A DNA stretch of 64,000 nt from Anaerolineae bacterium (GTDB lineage Bacteria > Chloroflexota > Anaerolineae > 4572-78 > J111), in the NCBI GenBank assembly GCA_022071955.1, contig JAJVIM010000001.1, positions 124,001 through 188,000 of the forward strand, in the 5' to 3' direction. Below the pieces are notes generated by a model, which worked only from the letters and a program-made list of their open reading frames with translations, was not told the origin of the DNA and ran no database searches. This document shows, piece by piece, positions 27,522 to 38,171 of the stretch; within the stretch, counting starts at the first letter, position 1, and each line of letters starts with the position of its first letter. The position numbers and the translations under genes are program-made.

Positions 27522-27689
27522 CTTCTGGCAAGTTCCTTTTAGTTATTATGTATACTTTAGTCCACTGATGATCCTGGGCGGGGGGCCGGGATTAATCCTC
27601 TTTTTTTCCTTTCAATTGTTTCCCCCTGCATTTTGAGATTTAGTACCGTTAACTCATTTCGATTTCATTTTCATCAAGGGGGGACCATT

Positions 27690-28154
27690 ATGGCCGAATC
27701 GCAACAAACCTATGTGAAGGATTTTATGACCGTGCGCACCGCGCGGATTCGTCATAATTCCAACATTCAACACGCCGCCGAAATTGTAGCCCTGTCCGGC
27801 GTTAGCGATTTGATGGTTGTTGACGATAGCGACAATTTTAGAGGCGTGCTGTCAGAAGGTGATATTCTCCGCACCGCGCTGCCAGACATCGACGAAATTC
27901 TGGAAGAAGGTGGCTCGCTGGATGACGCGTTTGAAATTTTTGTGCGCAAAGGGCACGAACTCTCTGATCTCCCCATTGCCCCGCTGATTATTGAAGAACC
28001 CATCAAAGTTGCTCCCAATGACCACGTGGCCAAAGCCGCAACGGTTCTGTTAGACAAGCAAATCCGCTTGCTGCCCGTGGTTGACAGCAACGGCAAACTG
28101 GTGGGTACCGTTTCCCGCGCTGATGTGTGCCGGGCGATTGTTGGCACTTTGTAG
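27690..28154 (+). CDS. Paired CBS-domain protein
   Basis: A 154-residue stand-alone protein consisting of two CBS motifs: VKDFMTVRTARIRHNSNIQHAAEIVALSGVSDLMVVDD-SDNFRGVLSEGDILR is the first, and the second ends LPVVDSNGKLVGTVSRADVCRAIVG. Such proteins bind adenine nucleotides and often sense energy state. AAGGGGGG at 27677-27683 lies six bases before ATG 27690, which is preferred over an upstream in-frame ATG at 27633 that would add a non-CBS leader. It stands 281 bases ahead of the giant redox fusion; a functional link is possible but not shown. A second CBS protein is at 44177. Confidence 0.83.
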   Translation: MAESQQTYVKDFMTVRTARIRHNSNIQHAAEIVALSGVSDLMVVDDSDNFRGVLSEGDILRTALPDIDEILEEGGSLDDAFEIFVRKGHELSDLPIAPLIIEEPIKVAPNDHVAKAATVLLDKQIRLLPVVDSNGKLVGTVSRADVCRAIVGTL

Positions 28155-28435: not shown

Positions 28436-31400
28436 ATGGCAGGAGCGCACGAAACAGTTTTGGGCACGCCGCCACCCCCGGCCCAGTTGTTCATTGAATC
28501 TGGTGAAGCCGCCGGCAGCAGCATCCCCATCGCCAAACACCAGTTGGTGCTGGGTCGCGATGAAGGCTCGGCGGATGTGGTGTTAAAAGACCCGCTGGTG
28601 TCCCGGCGGCATGTTCGAATCAGTTGGAAAGCCATCGAATATGCCGTTGAAGACCTGGGCAGCAGCAACGGCACGCTGCTCAACGGCGCGCCGCTGACCA
28701 AAATACAAATGTTCAAATCCGGTGACCGGCTCGAACTGGGCAAAACCACCCTCCGTTTTCAGGTGGGCGACGACATCGAGTCGGCCCAGCCCTATTCGGT
28801 TGATGTCGCGTTGGCCGCCGCTCCGCCAACCAAAACTGTTATCACCGCGCCGCCAGCGCCCGCTGCCGAGCCGTTGCCCAAACTGCGCACGCAGGATATG
28901 ATCCCGGCCCGGCTGGTGCTCTCCACCGCGGAACAGGCCAACAAGCGGCTCGGCCACGAAAACCTGGGCTTTTTGTCAGAAACTAACGGGCTGATGCCAA
29001 TGAAGCCGCCGCCTCTCAACCTGCCCGCCGGCTTTGAGGCGTGGGACAATATGGCCGCCAGCCTGCCGGAATTGTACCGCACGCTACGGGTGCGACAGGC
29101 GCTGCGCGAGATGCCGGTGCTCAGCGCCGCCGCAGAAGAGCTGCTCGACGCGTACCTGCTGCGGGCCTCGGTGATTATGAGCATGCTGGCCCACTCCTAC
29201 CATCGCGTTGAGGCCGATCCACCCAGCCAGCCTATGCCCGACAGCGTGCAACTGCCGTGGGAGCAAATTACCCGCCGCCTCAACCGCACCGCGCCGCACC
29301 TGTCCTACATCGACTTGATTATGTACAACTGGCGCATGGTCGATCCCGACCGCAGCCGGCCGATGAGTGTTGACAACCTGCGCTTGCTGGTACCCACCGT
29401 TGACAACAAAGAAGAGCGCATTTTCTACCTGACTCAGGTGGCGATTCTGGCTCAGTGCGCGCCGCTCATCAGCGCGATGGTGCGCGCTCAGGAAGCGCTG
29501 GCTAATGACGATGTTGACGCCCTTAAAAAGGAACTTATCCTCATTACCGATGGGTTGCTCGACGTGACCCACAACACTTTTATGACCATCAACCCCAACC
29601 CCCACAGCGACAGCTACGTTGACCCGGTGGTTTGGGCTAAAACCGTGGCTCCCTTTGCCGTGCCCATCGCGCCCGGCACCGCCGGCCCCAGCGGCACTTC
29701 GGCCCCGGTCTTTCACGTGCTCGATAATTTCTTTAGCCGCAAACGGTACGACAGCCGTTTTGGCGGCGAAATGCAGCATTTACGCGATTGGTATCCCCAG
29801 CACTGGCAAAATTTCATCGAGGCGCTCAACGAAATTTCCGTGGCCGATTACGTGGCCAAACGCGGCGACGCTACCCTGCAGGGTATCTACAAAGACGCTA
29901 CCCAGGCTTACGCCGGCGACAGCGGCTTTTTGTATCGCCACCGGCTGAAAGTGTACGGCTTTTTGGACATCGGTTTTAAAGTGGGCCGCAGCGTGACGAT
30001 TACCGGTTTCACCGGCCTGTTCAAAGACCGCACTTGGGACGCCGTTGATTTTGAGCTGGGCGACTCCAAAGAAGAGCGCATGCTCGATTTTCCGCAGTCC
30101 AGCCATTACGCCCGCATTAAAAGCATCGACATTACCAACGCCGGCGGCGATACCACTAAGTGGGTCAAGCGGGTCGTGTTTGATGTCTCCAACACCGGCG
30201 TGCGCTACCTCCCCGGCGACCGCTGCGCCATTTTGCCGGAAAACAACGATGGGTTGATCGATAAAACGCTGGCGGCGCTCAAAGCCAAAGGCTACGAAAA
30301 AGTCACCCTCACCGCCGAGTGGCGCGAAGCCATGAACCTGCGCGACGGCTACGAAGGCAGTACCACCCTGCCGCTCCGCACCCTGTTGCGCTACGGCCGC
30401 ATCCGCCCGGTGGAGCGAGACGTGGCCAAGGCGCTGTACGCCATCAGCCTTAACGGCACGCTGCGCAAAATCATCGAGGCCCGCGCCGAAGATCAGTGGG
30501 AATTGTGGGATTTACTGGACATGCTGACCAAAGCCGGTTTTGACCCCAAACGGCTGTGGAAGGCCCACCCCGGCGAGCGCGAGCATATTTGCCGCGTGGT
30601 GCCGCCGGAGAAATTCCGCATGTACTCCATTTCATCCACCACGGACCACAGCTCGCTGAACGGGGCCGATGAACTGACGCTAACCATCGGCCGGCTGCTG
30701 TACGATACCCGCGACACCGACGTAACCCGCCAGCAGGACCGCTACGGCACCACCTCGCACTATTTGGGCGACACCTCATTTTTGGGAGCGCAGGAGCGCG
30801 ACCGGGTGTCGATCAAGCTGGTGCACCCGCCGCGCTTTAACCTGCCGGCCGACCCCGGCACGCCGATTGTGATGTTTGCCGGCGGCACCGGCGTGGCCCC
30901 CTTCCGCGGCTTTATCCACGAACGTGTCCGCCAGCCGGGCGGCGGCGACAACTGGCTCTTTTTGGGCACCCGCACCCGCGCCGAATTTTACTACCAGGAA
31001 GAGTTTGAGCCGCTGGCGGCGCAGGGCCGGCTGAATGTTCGCCCGGCCTTTTCCCGCGACGCGGTGGACGTGGTGGTGAAAGACGGCCATTTTGTGTTTG
31101 AGCCGGGCCAGAAAAAGTACATTGGCGATGAAATGCTGCGCGAGGAAAACGCCAAGGCGCTGTGGGACATCATCCGCAGCAAAAAAGATGGCGGCCTCGG
31201 CGGCTGCCTGTACGTTTGCGGACGCACCGGCTTTGCCAACGCCGTGCTGGGCGGTATCAAAGAGATTCTGCGCCGCTACAGCGATGGCTCGCCGGAGGAA
31301 ATTGAGCAGCAGGTCAACCAGACGCTTTACCGGCTGGTGGGCGAAGAACGCTACATGCAGGATATTTTCACCACCTACACCGGTTCGCACATCGACAAAG

Positions 31401-32335
31401 AGCAGGCCTATTGCGCCTCGGAAATTGTGCTGCACAACAACGAGGAAAACGGCTACTGGATGGTGGTTGATGGCCGGGTGTACAACGTGGCCGAATTTGG
31501 CCACCTCCACCCCGGCGGCTTCAAAATTATTCACGCCTACGCCGGCATGGACGCCACCATCGCCTACCGCAAAGTGATGCATCACGTTAACCCGGAAGTC
31601 GACTCAATGCTGGGCATGTACGAGATTGGGGTGGTGCGCCGGCTCAATTTTGGCATGGAATGGGGCGTGGTGGTCGGCCCGGACGGGCTGCGCTTTATGG
31701 CCCTGGCCGATGTTTACCGCAACTGGATTCGCTTTTTGTACAACGTGGTTGAAATGGAGAACGCCCTGTTCAACGATTACAGCCTCAAAGAGCAGGCCAT
31801 GACCGCCGGCGACGCCCCGGACTCCTACCCGCCCATCAAGTTGCAATTCCTGCTGGAAGTCCACGACCGCTTTATGATTAACTACGTCGATGGCACTTGC
31901 GGCAGTATTTTGGCTAATCTGTGGGCTGTGACCAGCGGCATTTGCGCCGAAAATCAGGATGTGCGCTGGATTGAACGCGAAGTTGAGCGCATCCAACACA
32001 GTGAAGAAGCCGATACCGTGCGGCGCGTGAGCCAGGAACTCCAGCGGCGCATCAACGATGTTGTTGCCCGCAACGCCCCGGAAAGCGACCCGGTGGTGGC
32101 GCTGGTTAAACGTTACTGCGCCATGCTGGATCGAGAGGACAAGCGCTATCTGTACGAGATAAAAATGGCTCTGCGCGAGGGCGTGCTTATTTTTGAAAAA
32201 TATGAACACAACACCGCCCGGCTGGGCAACGACGAGCTGTTGGAGGTGGTCAAACGTATCCCGCGCATATTGGAGGGCTACTACGCCCGCGTGCTGTCCG
32301 GCGCGCTGAGCATCATGCTCACCCAACCGGAATAG
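28436..32335 (+). CDS. FHA - IDO-like heme domain - CPR-type reductase - cytochrome b5 fusion
   Basis: A 1299-residue single chain. FHA, ~15-110: GRDEGSADVVL, SRRHVRI and LGSSNGTLLNG, a phosphothreonine-binding fold. IDO-like domain, ~175-525: LPAGFEAWDNMAASLPEL, LSYIDLIMYNW, GTSAPVFHVLDNFF, a YPQHWQNFIEAL block like the IDO YMPPAHRNFL, then ISVADYVAKRGDATLQGIY and LYRHRLKVYGFL, giving H502 as predicted proximal heme ligand. Reductase, ~555-985: FAD motif RMYSISS (728-734), NADPH motifs GGTGVAPFRGF (816-826), LFLGTR and YVCG; no FMN flavodoxin domain. Cytochrome b5, ~985-1070: HPGG, ligands H1025 and H1049. Residues ~1075-1299 are helical and unrecognised. NADPH electrons probably pass via FAD and b5 to the IDO-like heme (inference). 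AAGGAG precedes the ATG. Confidence 0.85.
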   Translation: MAGAHETVLGTPPPPAQLFIESGEAAGSSIPIAKHQLVLGRDEGSADVVLKDPLVSRRHVRISWKAIEYAVEDLGSSNGTLLNGAPLTKIQMFKSGDRLELGKTTLRFQVGDDIESAQPYSVDVALAAAPPTKTVITAPPAPAAEPLPKLRTQDMIPARLVLSTAEQANKRLGHENLGFLSETNGLMPMKPPPLNLPAGFEAWDNMAASLPELYRTLRVRQALREMPVLSAAAEELLDAYLLRASVIMSMLAHSYHRVEADPPSQPMPDSVQLPWEQITRRLNRTAPHLSYIDLIMYNWRMVDPDRSRPMSVDNLRLLVPTVDNKEERIFYLTQVAILAQCAPLISAMVRAQEALANDDVDALKKELILITDGLLDVTHNTFMTINPNPHSDSYVDPVVWAKTVAPFAVPIAPGTAGPSGTSAPVFHVLDNFFSRKRYDSRFGGEMQHLRDWYPQHWQNFIEALNEISVADYVAKRGDATLQGIYKDATQAYAGDSGFLYRHRLKVYGFLDIGFKVGRSVTITGFTGLFKDRTWDAVDFELGDSKEERMLDFPQSSHYARIKSIDITNAGGDTTKWVKRVVFDVSNTGVRYLPGDRCAILPENNDGLIDKTLAALKAKGYEKVTLTAEWREAMNLRDGYEGSTTLPLRTLLRYGRIRPVERDVAKALYAISLNGTLRKIIEARAEDQWELWDLLDMLTKAGFDPKRLWKAHPGEREHICRVVPPEKFRMYSISSTTDHSSLNGADELTLTIGRLLYDTRDTDVTRQQDRYGTTSHYLGDTSFLGAQERDRVSIKLVHPPRFNLPADPGTPIVMFAGGTGVAPFRGFIHERVRQPGGGDNWLFLGTRTRAEFYYQEEFEPLAAQGRLNVRPAFSRDAVDVVVKDGHFVFEPGQKKYIGDEMLREENAKALWDIIRSKKDGGLGGCLYVCGRTGFANAVLGGIKEILRRYSDGSPEEIEQQVNQTLYRLVGEERYMQDIFTTYTGSHIDKEQAYCASEIVLHNNEENGYWMVVDGRVYNVAEFGHLHPGGFKIIHAYAGMDATIAYRKVMHHVNPEVDSMLGMYEIGVVRRLNFGMEWGVVVGPDGLRFMALADVYRNWIRFLYNVVEMENALFNDYSLKEQAMTAGDAPDSYPPIKLQFLLEVHDRFMINYVDGTCGSILANLWAVTSGICAENQDVRWIEREVERIQHSEEADTVRRVSQELQRRINDVVARNAPESDPVVALVKRYCAMLDREDKRYLYEIKMALREGVLIFEKYEHNTARLGNDELLEVVKRIPRILEGYYARVLSGALSIMLTQPE

Positions 32336-32525: not shown

Positions 32526-35500
32526 ATGACTACTTACGACACGCCCCAAAAAAATATCGATCTGATTTACCGCCTGCGCGGCCTGGGCATGGCCGGCGCT
32601 ATTCTGCACATCGGCGCGCACCCGGATGACGAAGACGTGGGGTTGATGGCCACTATGGCCCGCAAATTTGGCCAGCGCATTGTCTACTGGTCGGCGACGC
32701 GCGGCGAAGGCGGCCAGAACCGCATTGGCCCGGAACGGAACGAGGCGCTGGGGGTGTATCGCACCTGGGAAAGCCTGGATGCCCGCGCCGTGGATGGCGG
32801 CGAAGCACTGTTCGGCCCATTTTTCGATTTTGGCTTCAGTAAAAGCGGCGAAGAAACGCTGGCCAAATGGGGTGGGGCCGAGCTGGTGACGCAGGAAATT
32901 GTGCGCGCCATCCGCATGGTGCAGCCGCAGATTGTGATTGGCCGTTGGACCGGCGATCCCGCCAGCGACGGCCACGGCCACCATCAGGCTGTCGGCGCGG
33001 TCACGGCCGCTGCTTTTGCCGCTGCCGGCGAACCCGCTCGCTTCCCGGCGTTGGGGCTGGCCGCGTGGCAGCCGCAAAAGCTGTTCTATTCCACCGGCGG
33101 CGACTGGCAGCCCGGCGAGGAGGGCGGCAAATTTGGGGCGCGGAACCCGGAGTTTGAGCGCGATGGCTTTGTGCGCCTTAACAGCGGTGAGTTCGACCCC
33201 ATTGCCAACCGTACCTATCAGGAACAGGCCTGGATTGGCTTTAACAGCCACAAAACGCAGGCAATGGGCTTTGTCCCGGAAAAAGAGCGCTTTTTTTACT
33301 ACTACCGCCGCGCCGAAAGCCGTGTGCCCGTTGGCGAGGGGCTGAAGCCGGATTTTTACGACGGGCTGGATGCCACGCTCACTGCTCTGGCGCACTACCC
33401 CGGCGGTGGTTCGGCGGCGCTGCACAGCCGGCTGGAGGCTGTCAAAGAAAAAGCGCAGGCGGCGCTGGCCCAGTTTCGGGCCGATGACGCCGCCCAGGCC
33501 GGCACGTCGCTGCTGGAAGGCGCGACGCTGCTGCGCTCACTGCGGGCGGAACTGGCCGCCGAGGCGCTCGCTGAAACGGCGCGGCAGGCGCTGGTTGGTT
33601 ATCTGCGCCGCAAACAGCGCGATTTTGAGGAAACCGCCGCCCAATGTCTGGGGTTTGAGCTGGAATGTTTGGCCGATTACGCCCGCGTTACGCCCAGCCA
33701 GCAGTTCCGGGTAACCACCCGCTTCTGGAATCCGCGCAACATTCATCTGCGCCGGGCGGAGTTCACTTTTGATGTGCCGGACGACTGGCAGATTGTGCCG
33801 GTTGACCGCGAAGGGGCCAGCGAGCGCCCCAACCGCCCCGAAGCCGTGTACGACATCACCGTTTCGGCGCAGGCTCCGCTGGACTGCCCCTACTGGCTCA
33901 TTCAACCGCGCGACGGCTTTCGCTACCGCTGGCCACAGGGCGACCCCGCGGGCCTGCCGTTTGGCCAGCCGTTGGTGCAGCTCAAATGCGAGGTGGCGCT
34001 GGGTGAACACGAGTTGACGCTGAGCGCGCCGGCTATCTTCCGCGAGGGTTTTCCCGGCGGCTTCCGTGAACTGCCGGTGGCCGTGGTCCCGCCGATTTCG
34101 CTCCAGCCCAAAGTCAGCCAGGAAATTTTGCAGGTGAGCGCCGAAGCGCAAACTGTGGAGTTGCAGGCAGTGGCCTACAGCAATATGGAATGGCTGGGCG
34201 TGGAGGGCGTGCTGCGGGTAGAAACGCCGCCCGGTTGGCAGGTTGAACCGGCGGAAGTGCGGCTGGTGCTGGGCCAGGTGGGGGATATGCGCACCGTCAA
34301 TTTTAGGGTAACCATCCCCCAGCACACGCCGGCGGGCGTCTATCCGCTGCGGTACGTGGTCCACTGCGGCGGCCGCGAGTACGATGTGGTGCTCAAGCCG
34401 GTGCGGATGGGCGCGCCGGGGCTGCCCCGCCAGCCGGATGAGTCAACCTGTATTCGCGAGCAGTTTATCACTACCCCGGCCGTCAACCAGGTGCATCTGA
34501 TCGATGTGGCGGTGACGCCCGGCCTGAAATACGGCTACATTCAGGGCGCGGCGGAAGATGTGCTGACCGCGCTGCGCCATTTTAAGCTGGACATTTACGT
34601 CATTTCCGATGACGAACTGGGCTACATCGACCTGGAGCAGTTTGACGCCATCATTGTTGGCCCCAACGCTTACCTGATGAACGATGCGCTGCGTAAAAAT
34701 GCCACTCGCCTGCCGCGCTACGTGGAGCAGGGCGGCACGCTGCTGGTGCAGTACCAGGGTTACGGCTATCAGCGCGATGAGTTTGTGCCGTATCCGTTTA
34801 AATACAGCCAGCCGCATGACCGGGTAACATTTGAGGATGCGCCGGTTACGTTTTTGCAGCCGGAGCACTTTCTGTTTCACCAGCCCAATAAAATCACTGC
34901 AGCCGATTTTGAGGGTTGGGTTCACGACCGGGGCATGTACTTTTTTGGCCAGTGGGACAAGCGGTACACGCCGCTGCTGGCCTGCAATGACCCCGGCGAA
35001 TCGCCCAAAGCGGGCGGGTTGATGATCACCAGCTACGGGCGCGGCACCTATATTTACGCGGCCTACTCCTTTTTCCGGCAGATGCCGGCCGGCGTGCCGG
35101 GCGGATTTCGGCTGTTTGCCAACCTGCTGGCCACGCCGATGGCCCTTATTTTGGCCCGCGCCGAATTTTTGAAAAAAGTGTCGCTCTTTGCCTTTATGAA
35201 CGAGGCGCAGTTGCAAACCGTGGCCCGGATTATGGCCGAGCAGTGGGCAAAAAACGGGATGTACTTATGCCATCAGGGTGACGAAGGCGGCGAAATGTTC
35301 ATCATTGTGCAGGGCGAGGTGGAAATCATCAAAGAGACCAAATACAAGCCGGATCAGATTATTTACGTGGCCAAAGCCGGTGAGGCCATTGGCGAAATGG
35401 AGGTACTGGGCAAAGGGTTTCGTACGGCGGCCATGCGGGCCAGAGGCGATATCCAACTGCTCACCATTCAGGGTGTTCATTTTAGAGAGCTGATGCACCA

Positions 35501-35573
35501 ACACCCGGATATGCTGGATCGAGTGATTCAGATGCTGGTGGATAAGTTGGCCGCCGCCGGAATAGCCGGCTAA
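32526..35573 (+). CDS. PIG-L deacetylase fused to C-terminal cyclic-nucleotide-binding domain
   Basis: A 1015-residue protein. Residues ~25-270 form a PIG-L/LmbE hydrolase with AHPDDED (31-37), the GEGGQNRIGPER block and the HGHHQAVG ligand region (150-157). The middle (~375-640) has beta-sandwich segments (FDVPDDWQIVPVDREGAS, VLRVETPPGWQVEPAEVRLV), NPCBM/NEW3-like; ~650-870 resembles a GATase-like/ThuA-like Rossmann region (FDAIIVGPNAYLMND, GGTLLVQYQGYGY). The last ~130 residues are a cNMP-binding domain (EMFIIVQGEVEII, phosphate cassette GEMEVLGKGFRTAAMRA with Glu and Arg retained). No signal peptide is evident. bshA follows by 7 bases, so a role in thiol-conjugate hydrolysis under second-messenger control is an attractive but unproven inference. 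Confidence 0.8.
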   Translation: MTTYDTPQKNIDLIYRLRGLGMAGAILHIGAHPDDEDVGLMATMARKFGQRIVYWSATRGEGGQNRIGPERNEALGVYRTWESLDARAVDGGEALFGPFFDFGFSKSGEETLAKWGGAELVTQEIVRAIRMVQPQIVIGRWTGDPASDGHGHHQAVGAVTAAAFAAAGEPARFPALGLAAWQPQKLFYSTGGDWQPGEEGGKFGARNPEFERDGFVRLNSGEFDPIANRTYQEQAWIGFNSHKTQAMGFVPEKERFFYYYRRAESRVPVGEGLKPDFYDGLDATLTALAHYPGGGSAALHSRLEAVKEKAQAALAQFRADDAAQAGTSLLEGATLLRSLRAELAAEALAETARQALVGYLRRKQRDFEETAAQCLGFELECLADYARVTPSQQFRVTTRFWNPRNIHLRRAEFTFDVPDDWQIVPVDREGASERPNRPEAVYDITVSAQAPLDCPYWLIQPRDGFRYRWPQGDPAGLPFGQPLVQLKCEVALGEHELTLSAPAIFREGFPGGFRELPVAVVPPISLQPKVSQEILQVSAEAQTVELQAVAYSNMEWLGVEGVLRVETPPGWQVEPAEVRLVLGQVGDMRTVNFRVTIPQHTPAGVYPLRYVVHCGGREYDVVLKPVRMGAPGLPRQPDESTCIREQFITTPAVNQVHLIDVAVTPGLKYGYIQGAAEDVLTALRHFKLDIYVISDDELGYIDLEQFDAIIVGPNAYLMNDALRKNATRLPRYVEQGGTLLVQYQGYGYQRDEFVPYPFKYSQPHDRVTFEDAPVTFLQPEHFLFHQPNKITAADFEGWVHDRGMYFFGQWDKRYTPLLACNDPGESPKAGGLMITSYGRGTYIYAAYSFFRQMPAGVPGGFRLFANLLATPMALILARAEFLKKVSLFAFMNEAQLQTVARIMAEQWAKNGMYLCHQGDEGGEMFIIVQGEVEIIKETKYKPDQIIYVAKAGEAIGEMEVLGKGFRTAAMRARGDIQLLTIQGVHFRELMHQHPDMLDRVIQMLVDKLAAAGIAG

Positions 35574-37000: not shown

Positions 37001-37043
37001 CGATGTTTGATTGATTTTACACAACATACCAACGGACCCAATT

Positions 37044-38171
37044 ATGCAACCCATCACCGAATTCATTCAATCCCCCGCCGGCCGGCAATTTTTAGAGTCA
37101 AACGGCGTTTACATCGACCGGCCAACATTTGAGGCTCAGTTACGCCTGCCGCTTGAGCCGGATTTGGCCGCGGATTTGGGCCAGCCCGGCAAAAAACTGG
37201 TCTGTTCCGGCCAGCAAATTTACGTTGATTACCGGCAGTCAGTATTGAGCAAAGTGGAAATTTTGCGCGATATGGCCGGCCGCAGCGATCTGTTTGGCTT
37301 CTTTTTGTGGGTCGATACCGACCGTTCCGGCTCCGACAATTTGATCACTAAATTTGCCTGGCCCAACTTCAGCAAAAAAGGGCCGATCACCATTATGCCC
37401 TCGCGCACCCGCGAGGTGGAGGCCCGCTTTGCCGAAATTGAAGACGAGCGCCTCGCCAGCGCCATCGACAAGTTGGAAACCTACCTGCGCCAATACGCCA
37501 AACCGCACAAAGGGGCCAAAGAACGCTTTATGCAGTTGCGTTCAATTTTTATGGGGGAAAATCATCACACTCTGGGCGAGTTCAATTTGCGCCTGACCAA
37601 TTTTTTGCTGGAGCAGGTGTACGATTACGTGCCGCCGGCGCGGTTGCTGTCGCAGATGCTTGGCCAGCCGGCCATCCTCGCCGAAATTGAACAGTTTGTG
37701 AACGCCCTGCCGGAGGCGCGGCAAGTGTTCAACGAGACCATCGAAACCGTGGCCGGTCACGGCCTCGATCCCCAGCTTTCACCGCTGGACGAGCACTATT
37801 TGCCCCTTTTCTTTTCCTGCCAGGCCGATGACCAGCGGCTGCGGCTGTATCGGTACAGTGAAAACGGCGACCATTTTGCCGGCGGGCGCTGTCGCTGCGG
37901 CCAAACCTACAGATTTCACCTGGGCCAGCGCCGGCTTTCGCTGGCCGAAATTGCCCAAACCGGCCGCTGGAGCCCCGATGTTTGCTTTCCCATTTATTTT
38001 AACGACCGGGTGAGCGGTTTTGTGGCCGGCAAAAGTTCCGGCATTTATCTGATGGTGCTGGGGGCGGTGATGCGCCGGGTGCTGGGCAAATCGCCGGTGC
38101 CGGTGCTGCTGCCCACCCGCCTGGCCGCCGCCGAACCGGACAGCCTGCTGTACAAATATATGACTCAGTAA
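37044..38171 (+). CDS. Compact BshC-like putative cysteine ligase
   Basis: A 375-residue protein that I match by hand to BshC, the ligase adding Cys to GlcN-malate. Landmarks: LVCSGQQIYVDYRQSVLSKVEIL resembles the GQQ-x-K nucleotide-site stretch; FGFFLWVDTDRSGSDNL resembles the PVFWVAGEDHD block; PLFFSCQADDQRLRLYRYSENG resembles the LFYEYEDERFLI region; and WSPDVCFPIYFNDR then FVAGKSSGIYLMVLGAVMRRVLG resemble the C-terminal core strand-helix unit. BshC is usually ~540 residues, ending in a long coiled coil that is missing here. A CRCG motif is present and might bind metal. Chosen start ATG 37044; TTG 37011 is the alternative. The family call needs a profile search. Confidence 0.58.
   Translation: MQPITEFIQSPAGRQFLESNGVYIDRPTFEAQLRLPLEPDLAADLGQPGKKLVCSGQQIYVDYRQSVLSKVEILRDMAGRSDLFGFFLWVDTDRSGSDNLITKFAWPNFSKKGPITIMPSRTREVEARFAEIEDERLASAIDKLETYLRQYAKPHKGAKERFMQLRSIFMGENHHTLGEFNLRLTNFLLEQVYDYVPPARLLSQMLGQPAILAEIEQFVNALPEARQVFNETIETVAGHGLDPQLSPLDEHYLPLFFSCQADDQRLRLYRYSENGDHFAGGRCRCGQTYRFHLGQRRLSLAEIAQTGRWSPDVCFPIYFNDRVSGFVAGKSSGIYLMVLGAVMRRVLGKSPVPVLLPTRLAAAEPDSLLYKYMTQ

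What the first reader, a model, noticed from the sequence alone, without database searches (positions are those of the whole stretch)
28436..32335. Self-contained IDO-like heme enzyme with its own P450-reductase and cytochrome b5 modules
One 1299-residue chain contains FHA, an indoleamine-2,3-dioxygenase-like heme domain, a CPR-type FAD/NADPH reductase without flavodoxin, cytochrome b5 and an unknown helical domain. Hand alignment to human IDO1 gives matching landmarks over the whole IDO domain, including LSYIDLIMYNW versus LVYADCVLANW and SVADYVAKRGDATL versus SVREFVLSKGDAGL, and a proximal His candidate H502. In human cells ferric IDO1 is known to be reduced by cytochrome b5 with cytochrome P450 reductase; here these elements are linked in one gene. 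I am not aware of this architecture being described. The electron path NADPH-FAD-b5-heme is inference.
Basis: partly seen in the sequence, partly recalled or inferred. Interest (0 to 1): 0.95.

Follow-up and report, generated by a model that had tools for sequence, protein, structure and literature searches.

The report
NADPH-wired IDO-fold heme enzyme
One bacterial gene joins a relative of the human tryptophan-breaking heme enzyme IDO to an NADPH-reductase-type module and a cytochrome b5 domain, so the protein is predicted to feed electrons to its own heme; because the residue that grips tryptophan in IDO is gone in every fused relative compared, it likely oxidises something else.

The parts
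27690..28154 (+). CBS-domain-pair gene (154 aa from ATG; the mechanical ORF starts at 27633), upstream partner of the fused enzyme
   Evidence: Pfam CBS 2.6e-21, two stretches; listed homologues are mostly 149-155 aa, which points to ATG 27690; a CBS match lies under 500 bp upstream, same strand, in 52 of 59 loci
28436..32335 (+). fused enzyme, 1299 aa
28478..28765 (+). FHA domain, residues about 15-110, with GR (40-41), SRRH (56-59), NGT (78-80) and NG (83-84)
   Evidence: Pfam FHA 1.5e-15; motif positions; the roles of these residues are recalled
28889..30097 (+). IDO-fold domain, residues 152-554
29633..29650 (+). W400-A405: W400 at IDO1 F226, A401 at F227, A405 at Arg231
   Evidence: W400 94/94; position 405 Ala 66, Gly 28 of 94; stand-alone IDOs Arg 11/11; same register in hhalign
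29939..29941 (+). H502, proximal heme ligand candidate (IDO1 H346)
   Evidence: His in 94/94 long forms and 53/53 short forms
30128..31369 (+). CysJ/CPR-type FAD-NADPH module, residues 565-978, no flavodoxin; RMYSISS 728-734, GGTG 816-819, SRD 873-875, CG 928-929, F978
   Evidence: conservation
31403..31645 (+). cytochrome b5 domain, residues 990-1070; ligand candidates H1025 (HPGG) and H1049
   Evidence: Pfam Cyt-b5 1e-14; PDB b5 chains; both His 94/94
31649..32332 (+). C-terminal helical domain, residues 1072-1299, no clear known fold

Best explanation
This gene encodes in one chain an IDO-type domain, an FAD/NADPH-reductase-type module and a cytochrome b5 domain, and the protein likely works as a self-sufficient heme oxygenase in which NADPH electrons would pass through FAD and b5 to the IDO-type heme and would be spent on a substrate that is probably not tryptophan. 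Shown: the domains, the fold match by predicted structure, the conserved ligand histidines, the loss of the tryptophan-carboxylate arginine and of the GTGGT loop, the CBS partner gene, and a sister form without the reductase that keeps b5. Inferred: that heme and FAD are bound; that NADPH reduces FAD, FAD reduces b5 and b5 reduces the heme; that reduction recurs on each turnover (monooxygenase-like) and is not only a priming step; that the substrate lacks an alpha-amino-acid group; that the FHA domain (phosphothreonine) and the CBS partner (adenine nucleotide or similar ligand) switch the enzyme on or off.
For: IDO fold. Proximal His 94/94 and Asp at IDO1 D274 94/94. Pocket rebuilt: Arg231 to Ala/Gly 94/94, F226 to Trp 94/94, T379 to Phe 90/94, S167 (His in 11/11 stand-alone IDOs) to Gln 75/94; the same Trp, Ala, Gln and Phe in 53/53 short forms. 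Reductase: R728 94/94, S873 94/94, C928 94/94, best matches CysJ and BM3 FAD domains. b5 ligands 94/94. Fused clade on one side of a 100/100 branch. Short clade without reductase keeps b5 (46 IDO-b5-CT and 7 IDO-b5 of the 240 proteins listed; tree), which speaks for b5 as the heme's electron donor. Human IDO1 is supported in vitro by CPR with or without b5 (PMC13142367, passages); human IDO has monooxygenase activity beside dioxygenase activity (PMC12921851, passages). A TDO-family protein in 10 and a stand-alone IDO in 2 of 14 other genomes that carry it. CBS gene upstream in 52 of 59 loci; 32 of 59 with FHA, 12 with a receiver domain before the CBS domains, none with both (by tblastn).
Against: No biochemistry. 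The AF2 model holds no cofactors and I had no coordinates, so heme-b5-FAD distances are not measured. PrnB, an IDO relative, holds the tryptophan carboxylate through glycines, a serine and a heme propionate (PMC11791213, passages), so losing Arg231 does not exclude an amino-acid substrate; the fused family keeps Ser-Gly at IDO1 S263-A264 (S419 90/94, G420 94/94). The window's own genome shows no other IDO and no TDO but has a kynureninase above cut-off, though not among tryptophan genes. In one cyanobacterium an ordinary IDO gene follows the fused gene after 20 bp, a possible tie to tryptophan metabolism. NADPH preference is uneven: R874 only 65/94. b5 H1049 was seen in only 34 of 53 short forms, with 16 gaps and 3 other residues. 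The inference that the reductase was lost rests on a branch of moderate support: in 12% of 200 bootstrap trees the long forms are one group.
Confidence: 0.55

Rival explanations
1. It is a genuine tryptophan or indoleamine 2,3-dioxygenase that carries its own reactivating reductase and b5, and binds the amino-acid part in a new way.
For: IDO fold, proximal His and the counterparts of Y126 (Tyr 81/94), F163 (Phe 76/94), S263 (Ser 90/94) and D274 (94/94) kept; PrnB binds tryptophan without arginine; own genome has a kynureninase and no other IDO/TDO match; ordinary IDO gene next door in L058.
Against: Arg231 and F226 replaced in 94 of 94, R343 in 94 of 94, T379 in 93 of 93 without a gap; 12 of 14 other genomes also have a TDO-family protein or an IDO; the kynureninase neighbourhood reads as heme synthesis, not tryptophan breakdown (by eye).
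Confidence: 0.15
2. It is an NO dioxygenase or O2/NO-scavenging enzyme, an IDO-fold counterpart of flavohemoglobin.
For: Heme domain plus FNR-type reductase is the flavohemoglobin plan, and a truncated globin linked to nitrate reductase acts so too (PMC3820574, passages); an Arg-free pocket could suit a small ligand (inference).
Against: The same review says the IDO-like Turbo myoglobin cannot perform high-fidelity NO dioxygenation; I recognised no NO-response gene among the recurring neighbours, most of which were not annotated.
Confidence: 0.12
3. It is a redox- or gas-sensing signalling hub: the reductase sets the heme state and the FHA, CBS and receiver modules pass the signal on; no product is made.
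For: FHA, CBS, receiver and, in one relative, two cNMP-binding domains (L036) surround a heme-type domain.
Against: No output domain (kinase, cyclase, DNA-binding) in the precomputed Pfam column of the 120 rows and the 120 rows; a full NADPH chain seems costly for a sensor (inference).
Confidence: 0.12

Closest known systems
Indoleamine 2,3-dioxygenase 1/2 (PF01231)
   Different: Arg231 and GTGGT lost, F226 to Trp, fused to reductase and b5; separate clade
PrnB, MarE, TyrH, SfmD and other His-ligated heme-dependent aromatic oxygenases
   Same: His-ligated heme oxygenases related to IDO/TDO, some of them monooxygenases (PMC11791213, PMC12921851, passages)
   Different: The passages place them in natural-product biosynthesis and do not describe a reductase or b5 in the chain; how each binds its substrate I checked only for PrnB
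CysJ / cytochrome P450 reductase FAD-NADPH half, P450 BM3 (CYP102A1)
   Same: As in BM3, heme-type domain and CPR-type reductase in one chain; FAD/NADPH module best matches 1ddg and 4dqk
   Different: No flavodoxin (FMN) domain; b5 in its stead; heme domain is IDO-fold with a His ligand candidate, not P450
Flavohemoglobin and truncated globin linked to nitrate reductase
   Same: O2-binding heme with an in-chain FNR-type reductase (PMC3820574, passages); b5 in the nitrate reductase fusion is recalled
   Different: Globin, not IDO fold
Ncb5or / cytochrome b5 reductase 4 (recalled; its b5 chain 3lf5 is matched)
   Same: b5 and FNR-type reductase in one chain
   Different: No IDO domain; different order

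Membership tests
IDO (tryptophan 2,3-dioxygenating enzyme) | IDO fold | tested here: met
IDO (tryptophan 2,3-dioxygenating enzyme) | proximal heme histidine (H346) | tested here: met
   H502, 94/94
IDO (tryptophan 2,3-dioxygenating enzyme) | Arg231 for the substrate carboxylate | tested here: not met
   Ala/Gly 94/94; stand-alone IDOs 11/11 Arg
IDO (tryptophan 2,3-dioxygenating enzyme) | JK-loop GTGGT with T379 | tested here: not met
   T379 position Phe in 90/94 (others Ile, Tyr, Val, one gap); stand-alone IDOs Thr 10/11, one gap
IDO (tryptophan 2,3-dioxygenating enzyme) | N-formylkynurenine formation | not testable with these tools
   needs protein
[quoted passage not shown]
   fold and His met by prediction and alignment; heme itself not tested
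Diflavin reductase (CPR, CysJ) | FAD/NADPH half with RxYSxxS, NADP Ser, Cys-Gly and terminal aromatic | tested here: met
   R728 94/94, S873 94/94, C928-G929 94/94, F978 92/94; 1ddg 1.8e-23; motif roles recalled
Diflavin reductase (CPR, CysJ) | FMN-binding flavodoxin domain | tested here: not met
   no flavodoxin hit in Pfam or NCBIfam with the limit at E 10; the residues are taken up by other domains
Cytochrome b5 | HPGG and two axial histidines | tested here: met
   H1025 94/94, H1049 94/94, P1026 75/94, G1027 and G1028 94/94
FHA phosphothreonine reader | GR, S..H and NG motif residues | tested here: met
   present at 40-84; roles recalled; binding not tested
Flavohemoglobin | globin domain | tested here: not met
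   no globin in the Pfam scan to E 10; the segment is IDO fold

The most novel reading that the evidence does not exclude
A widespread, undescribed branch of heme oxygenases: an IDO-fold catalyst, stripped of its tryptophan grip and wired in-chain to NADPH through FAD and cytochrome b5, gated by phosphothreonine (FHA) and nucleotide (CBS) signals, with b5 as its dedicated natural reductant, and with a substrate and chemistry not yet known for any IDO relative.
Probability: 0.4. Interest if true: 0.92.

Novelty: new variant of a known kind. Interest (0 to 1): 0.82.

Why it matters
How IDO is reduced in cells is unsettled: CPR with or without b5 supports it in vitro, but a 2026 preprint still calls its role in vivo unclear (PMC13142367, passages). 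Here an IDO-fold domain, a CPR-type NADPH module and b5 are tied into one chain, and the sister lineage without the reductase keeps b5, so the electron path can be tested in a single purified protein. The rebuilt pocket points to new chemistry in a superfamily of drug targets and biosynthetic enzymes, and would give a His-ligated counterpart of the self-sufficient P450 BM3. The family is misnamed in public data: many listed members are called sulfite reductase flavoprotein.

Tried and rejected

In my note I called the reductase an added module; the later tree speaks for loss in the short clade, with moderate support (88/99), and the report follows the tree.

Full report
1. The observation. The ORF at 28436-32335 encodes 1299 residues. 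Pfam finds FHA, IDO (1.5e-35), FAD_binding_1, NAD_binding_1 and Cyt-b5 in that order. No flavodoxin appears in Pfam or NCBIfam with the limit set at E 10. The chain is not a chimera of assembly: 687 proteins were matched at E <= 1e-3 among 7997 scored candidates; in the 120 listed, relatives run from 81% down to about 49% identity, after P0002 (99%), which is shown as the window's own.

3. The heme ligand is kept, the tryptophan grip is not. Arg231, Arg in 11 of 11 stand-alone IDOs, is Ala (66) or Gly (28). F226 is Trp 94 of 94, F227 is Ala 81, Gly 11, Ser 2, R343 is Leu 89, Met 5, T379 is Phe in 90. The hhalign register agrees at both H346 and Arg231. The residue roles are recalled knowledge; PMC12921851 states the Arg231-carboxylate contact (passage). 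A caution: PrnB binds the carboxylate without arginine (PMC11791213, passages).

4. The electron chain. The reductase segment matches CysJ (1ddg, 1.8e-23; Foldseek top). R728 94/94, S734 92/94, G817 94/94, S873 94/94, C928 94/94, F978 92/94; the second NADPH-phosphate residue R874 only 65/94. b5 keeps H1025 and H1049 in 94 of 94. FAD directly to b5, without FMN, is how cytochrome b5 reductases work (recalled). Electron transfer to the IDO heme is inferred.

5. A sister form supports b5 as the donor. A search with the IDO domain alone (173 proteins at E <= 1e-3 among 6897 candidates, 120 listed) showed proteins with IDO and b5 but no reductase, among them ones named Geodermatophilus, Aquimarina and Pyrenophora. 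A domain census of the 240 proteins listed, with profiles built here, gives: FHA-IDO-FNR-b5-CT complete 81; IDO-FNR-b5-CT complete 28 and partial 10; IDO-b5-CT complete 14 and partial 32; IDO-b5 7; and 68 other partial chains (FHA-IDO-FNR-b5 1, FHA-IDO-FNR 7, IDO-FNR 13, FHA-IDO 10, IDO alone 37). accept different length ranges, so these counts are not frequencies. The 53 short forms are 628-718 aa, one 491; W400, A405, H502, Q334, F525 and H1025 are kept 53 of 53; H1049 was seen in 34, with 16 gaps and 3 other residues. A tree of 70 IDO domains (29 long, 29 of the 53 short, 12 ordinary) puts the short forms in one group (88/99) nested among the long forms and apart from ordinary IDOs (100/100); rooted on ordinary IDOs, the reductase was lost while b5 stayed. 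In 12% of 200 bootstrap trees the long forms are one group instead. An earlier tree of 52 sets 40 long forms against 12 ordinary IDOs at 100/100. Both trees carry long branches, human IDO1 among them.

6. Genomic setting. One scan of genome contigs gave 59 loci, whose titles name Chloroflexota, Actinomycetota (Herbidospora, Catellatospora, Dactylosporangium, Streptosporangium and others), Armatimonadota, Sandaracinaceae and Polyangia (Myxococcota), Proteobacteria and the cyanobacterium Limnofasciculus (MAG labels may be wrong). 54 of the 59 show all four of IDO, FNR, b5 and CT by tblastn. A CBS match lies under 500 bp upstream on the same strand in 52 of 59, most often with 53 bp between the match ends. 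Of the 7 without: L015, L046 and L058 are cut by contig ends, L059 shows only a reductase stretch, L057 is the short form, L023 and L034 lack it. 32 of 59 have FHA; 12 have a receiver-like domain in front of the CBS domains; none has both; 10, all among those 12, also have RidA upstream; 12 complete loci have neither FHA nor receiver. The receiver and RidA assignments rest on Pfam for L011 (receiver 31.3 bits, cut-off 30.2) and on tblastn for the rest. In the window the CBS gene is 27690-28154, 281 bp before the enzyme.

7. Is it the tryptophan dioxygenase of its hosts? I took 14 other genomes with a fused protein: 12 that I picked from the 59 loci, and G240 and G340. A TDO-family (PF03301) match over the cut-off is present in 10 and a stand-alone IDO in two more, G240 and G400; G407 and G409 show neither. 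Kynureninase over the cut-off is present in 5 of the 14. The window's own genome (90% complete) shows no other IDO and no TDO but has a kynureninase (276.8 bits, cut-off 246.4). In L058 an ordinary IDO with Arg231, H346, R343 and T379 follows the fused gene after 20 bp: two IDO domains side by side, one ordinary and one changed, argue for two functions, though perhaps on related molecules.

8. Verdict. IDO-fold membership: met. Tryptophan-IDO membership: two defining features tested and not met. It works, most likely, like a self-sufficient oxygenase (the logic of P450 BM3 or flavohemoglobin) on an IDO fold. Substrate unknown. The listings of my open-paper searches showed no description of this architecture.

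Noticed in passing
L058:48-4603: Cyanobacterial fused gene followed after 20 bp by an ordinary IDO gene (375 aa, Pfam 3e-102) with Arg231 and GTSGT.
   Followed up: partly
L057:6464-8575 and P0315, P0339, P0357: Reductase-less IDO-b5 form in records named Modestobacter, Geodermatophilus, Aquimarina and Pyrenophora (the last on a 7.3 Mb contig).
   Followed up: partly
L018:1330-6048: Chromatiaceae member continues into a saccharopine-dehydrogenase-like NADP-binding part at its C-terminus; fusion or misread stop not checked.
   Followed up: no
L036:1761-6146; L023:8963-13831: Members with two C-terminal cNMP-binding stretches (L036) and an N-terminal gamma-glutamyl-cyclotransferase-like domain (L023) in the same ORF.
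   Followed up: no
L014 and L017 (genome G408): Two fused copies, neither with an FHA match, in one Chloroflexi genome.
   Followed up: no
window 32526-35573: Next gene downstream, same strand: PIG-L deacetylase with NEW3-type and cyclic-nucleotide-binding domains.
   Followed up: no
L006, L008-L009, L011-L013, L035, L039, L054, L060: RidA-family (Endoribonuclease L-PSP) gene upstream of the receiver-CBS gene in 10 loci, which may hint at a reactive nitrogen intermediate.
   Followed up: partly
P0006, P0010 and others: Public annotation calls these proteins sulfite reductase flavoprotein alpha-component; the IDO and b5 domains are passed over.
   Followed up: yes
window 37011-38171: 386-aa protein without a Pfam match at E <= 0.001.
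   Followed up: no
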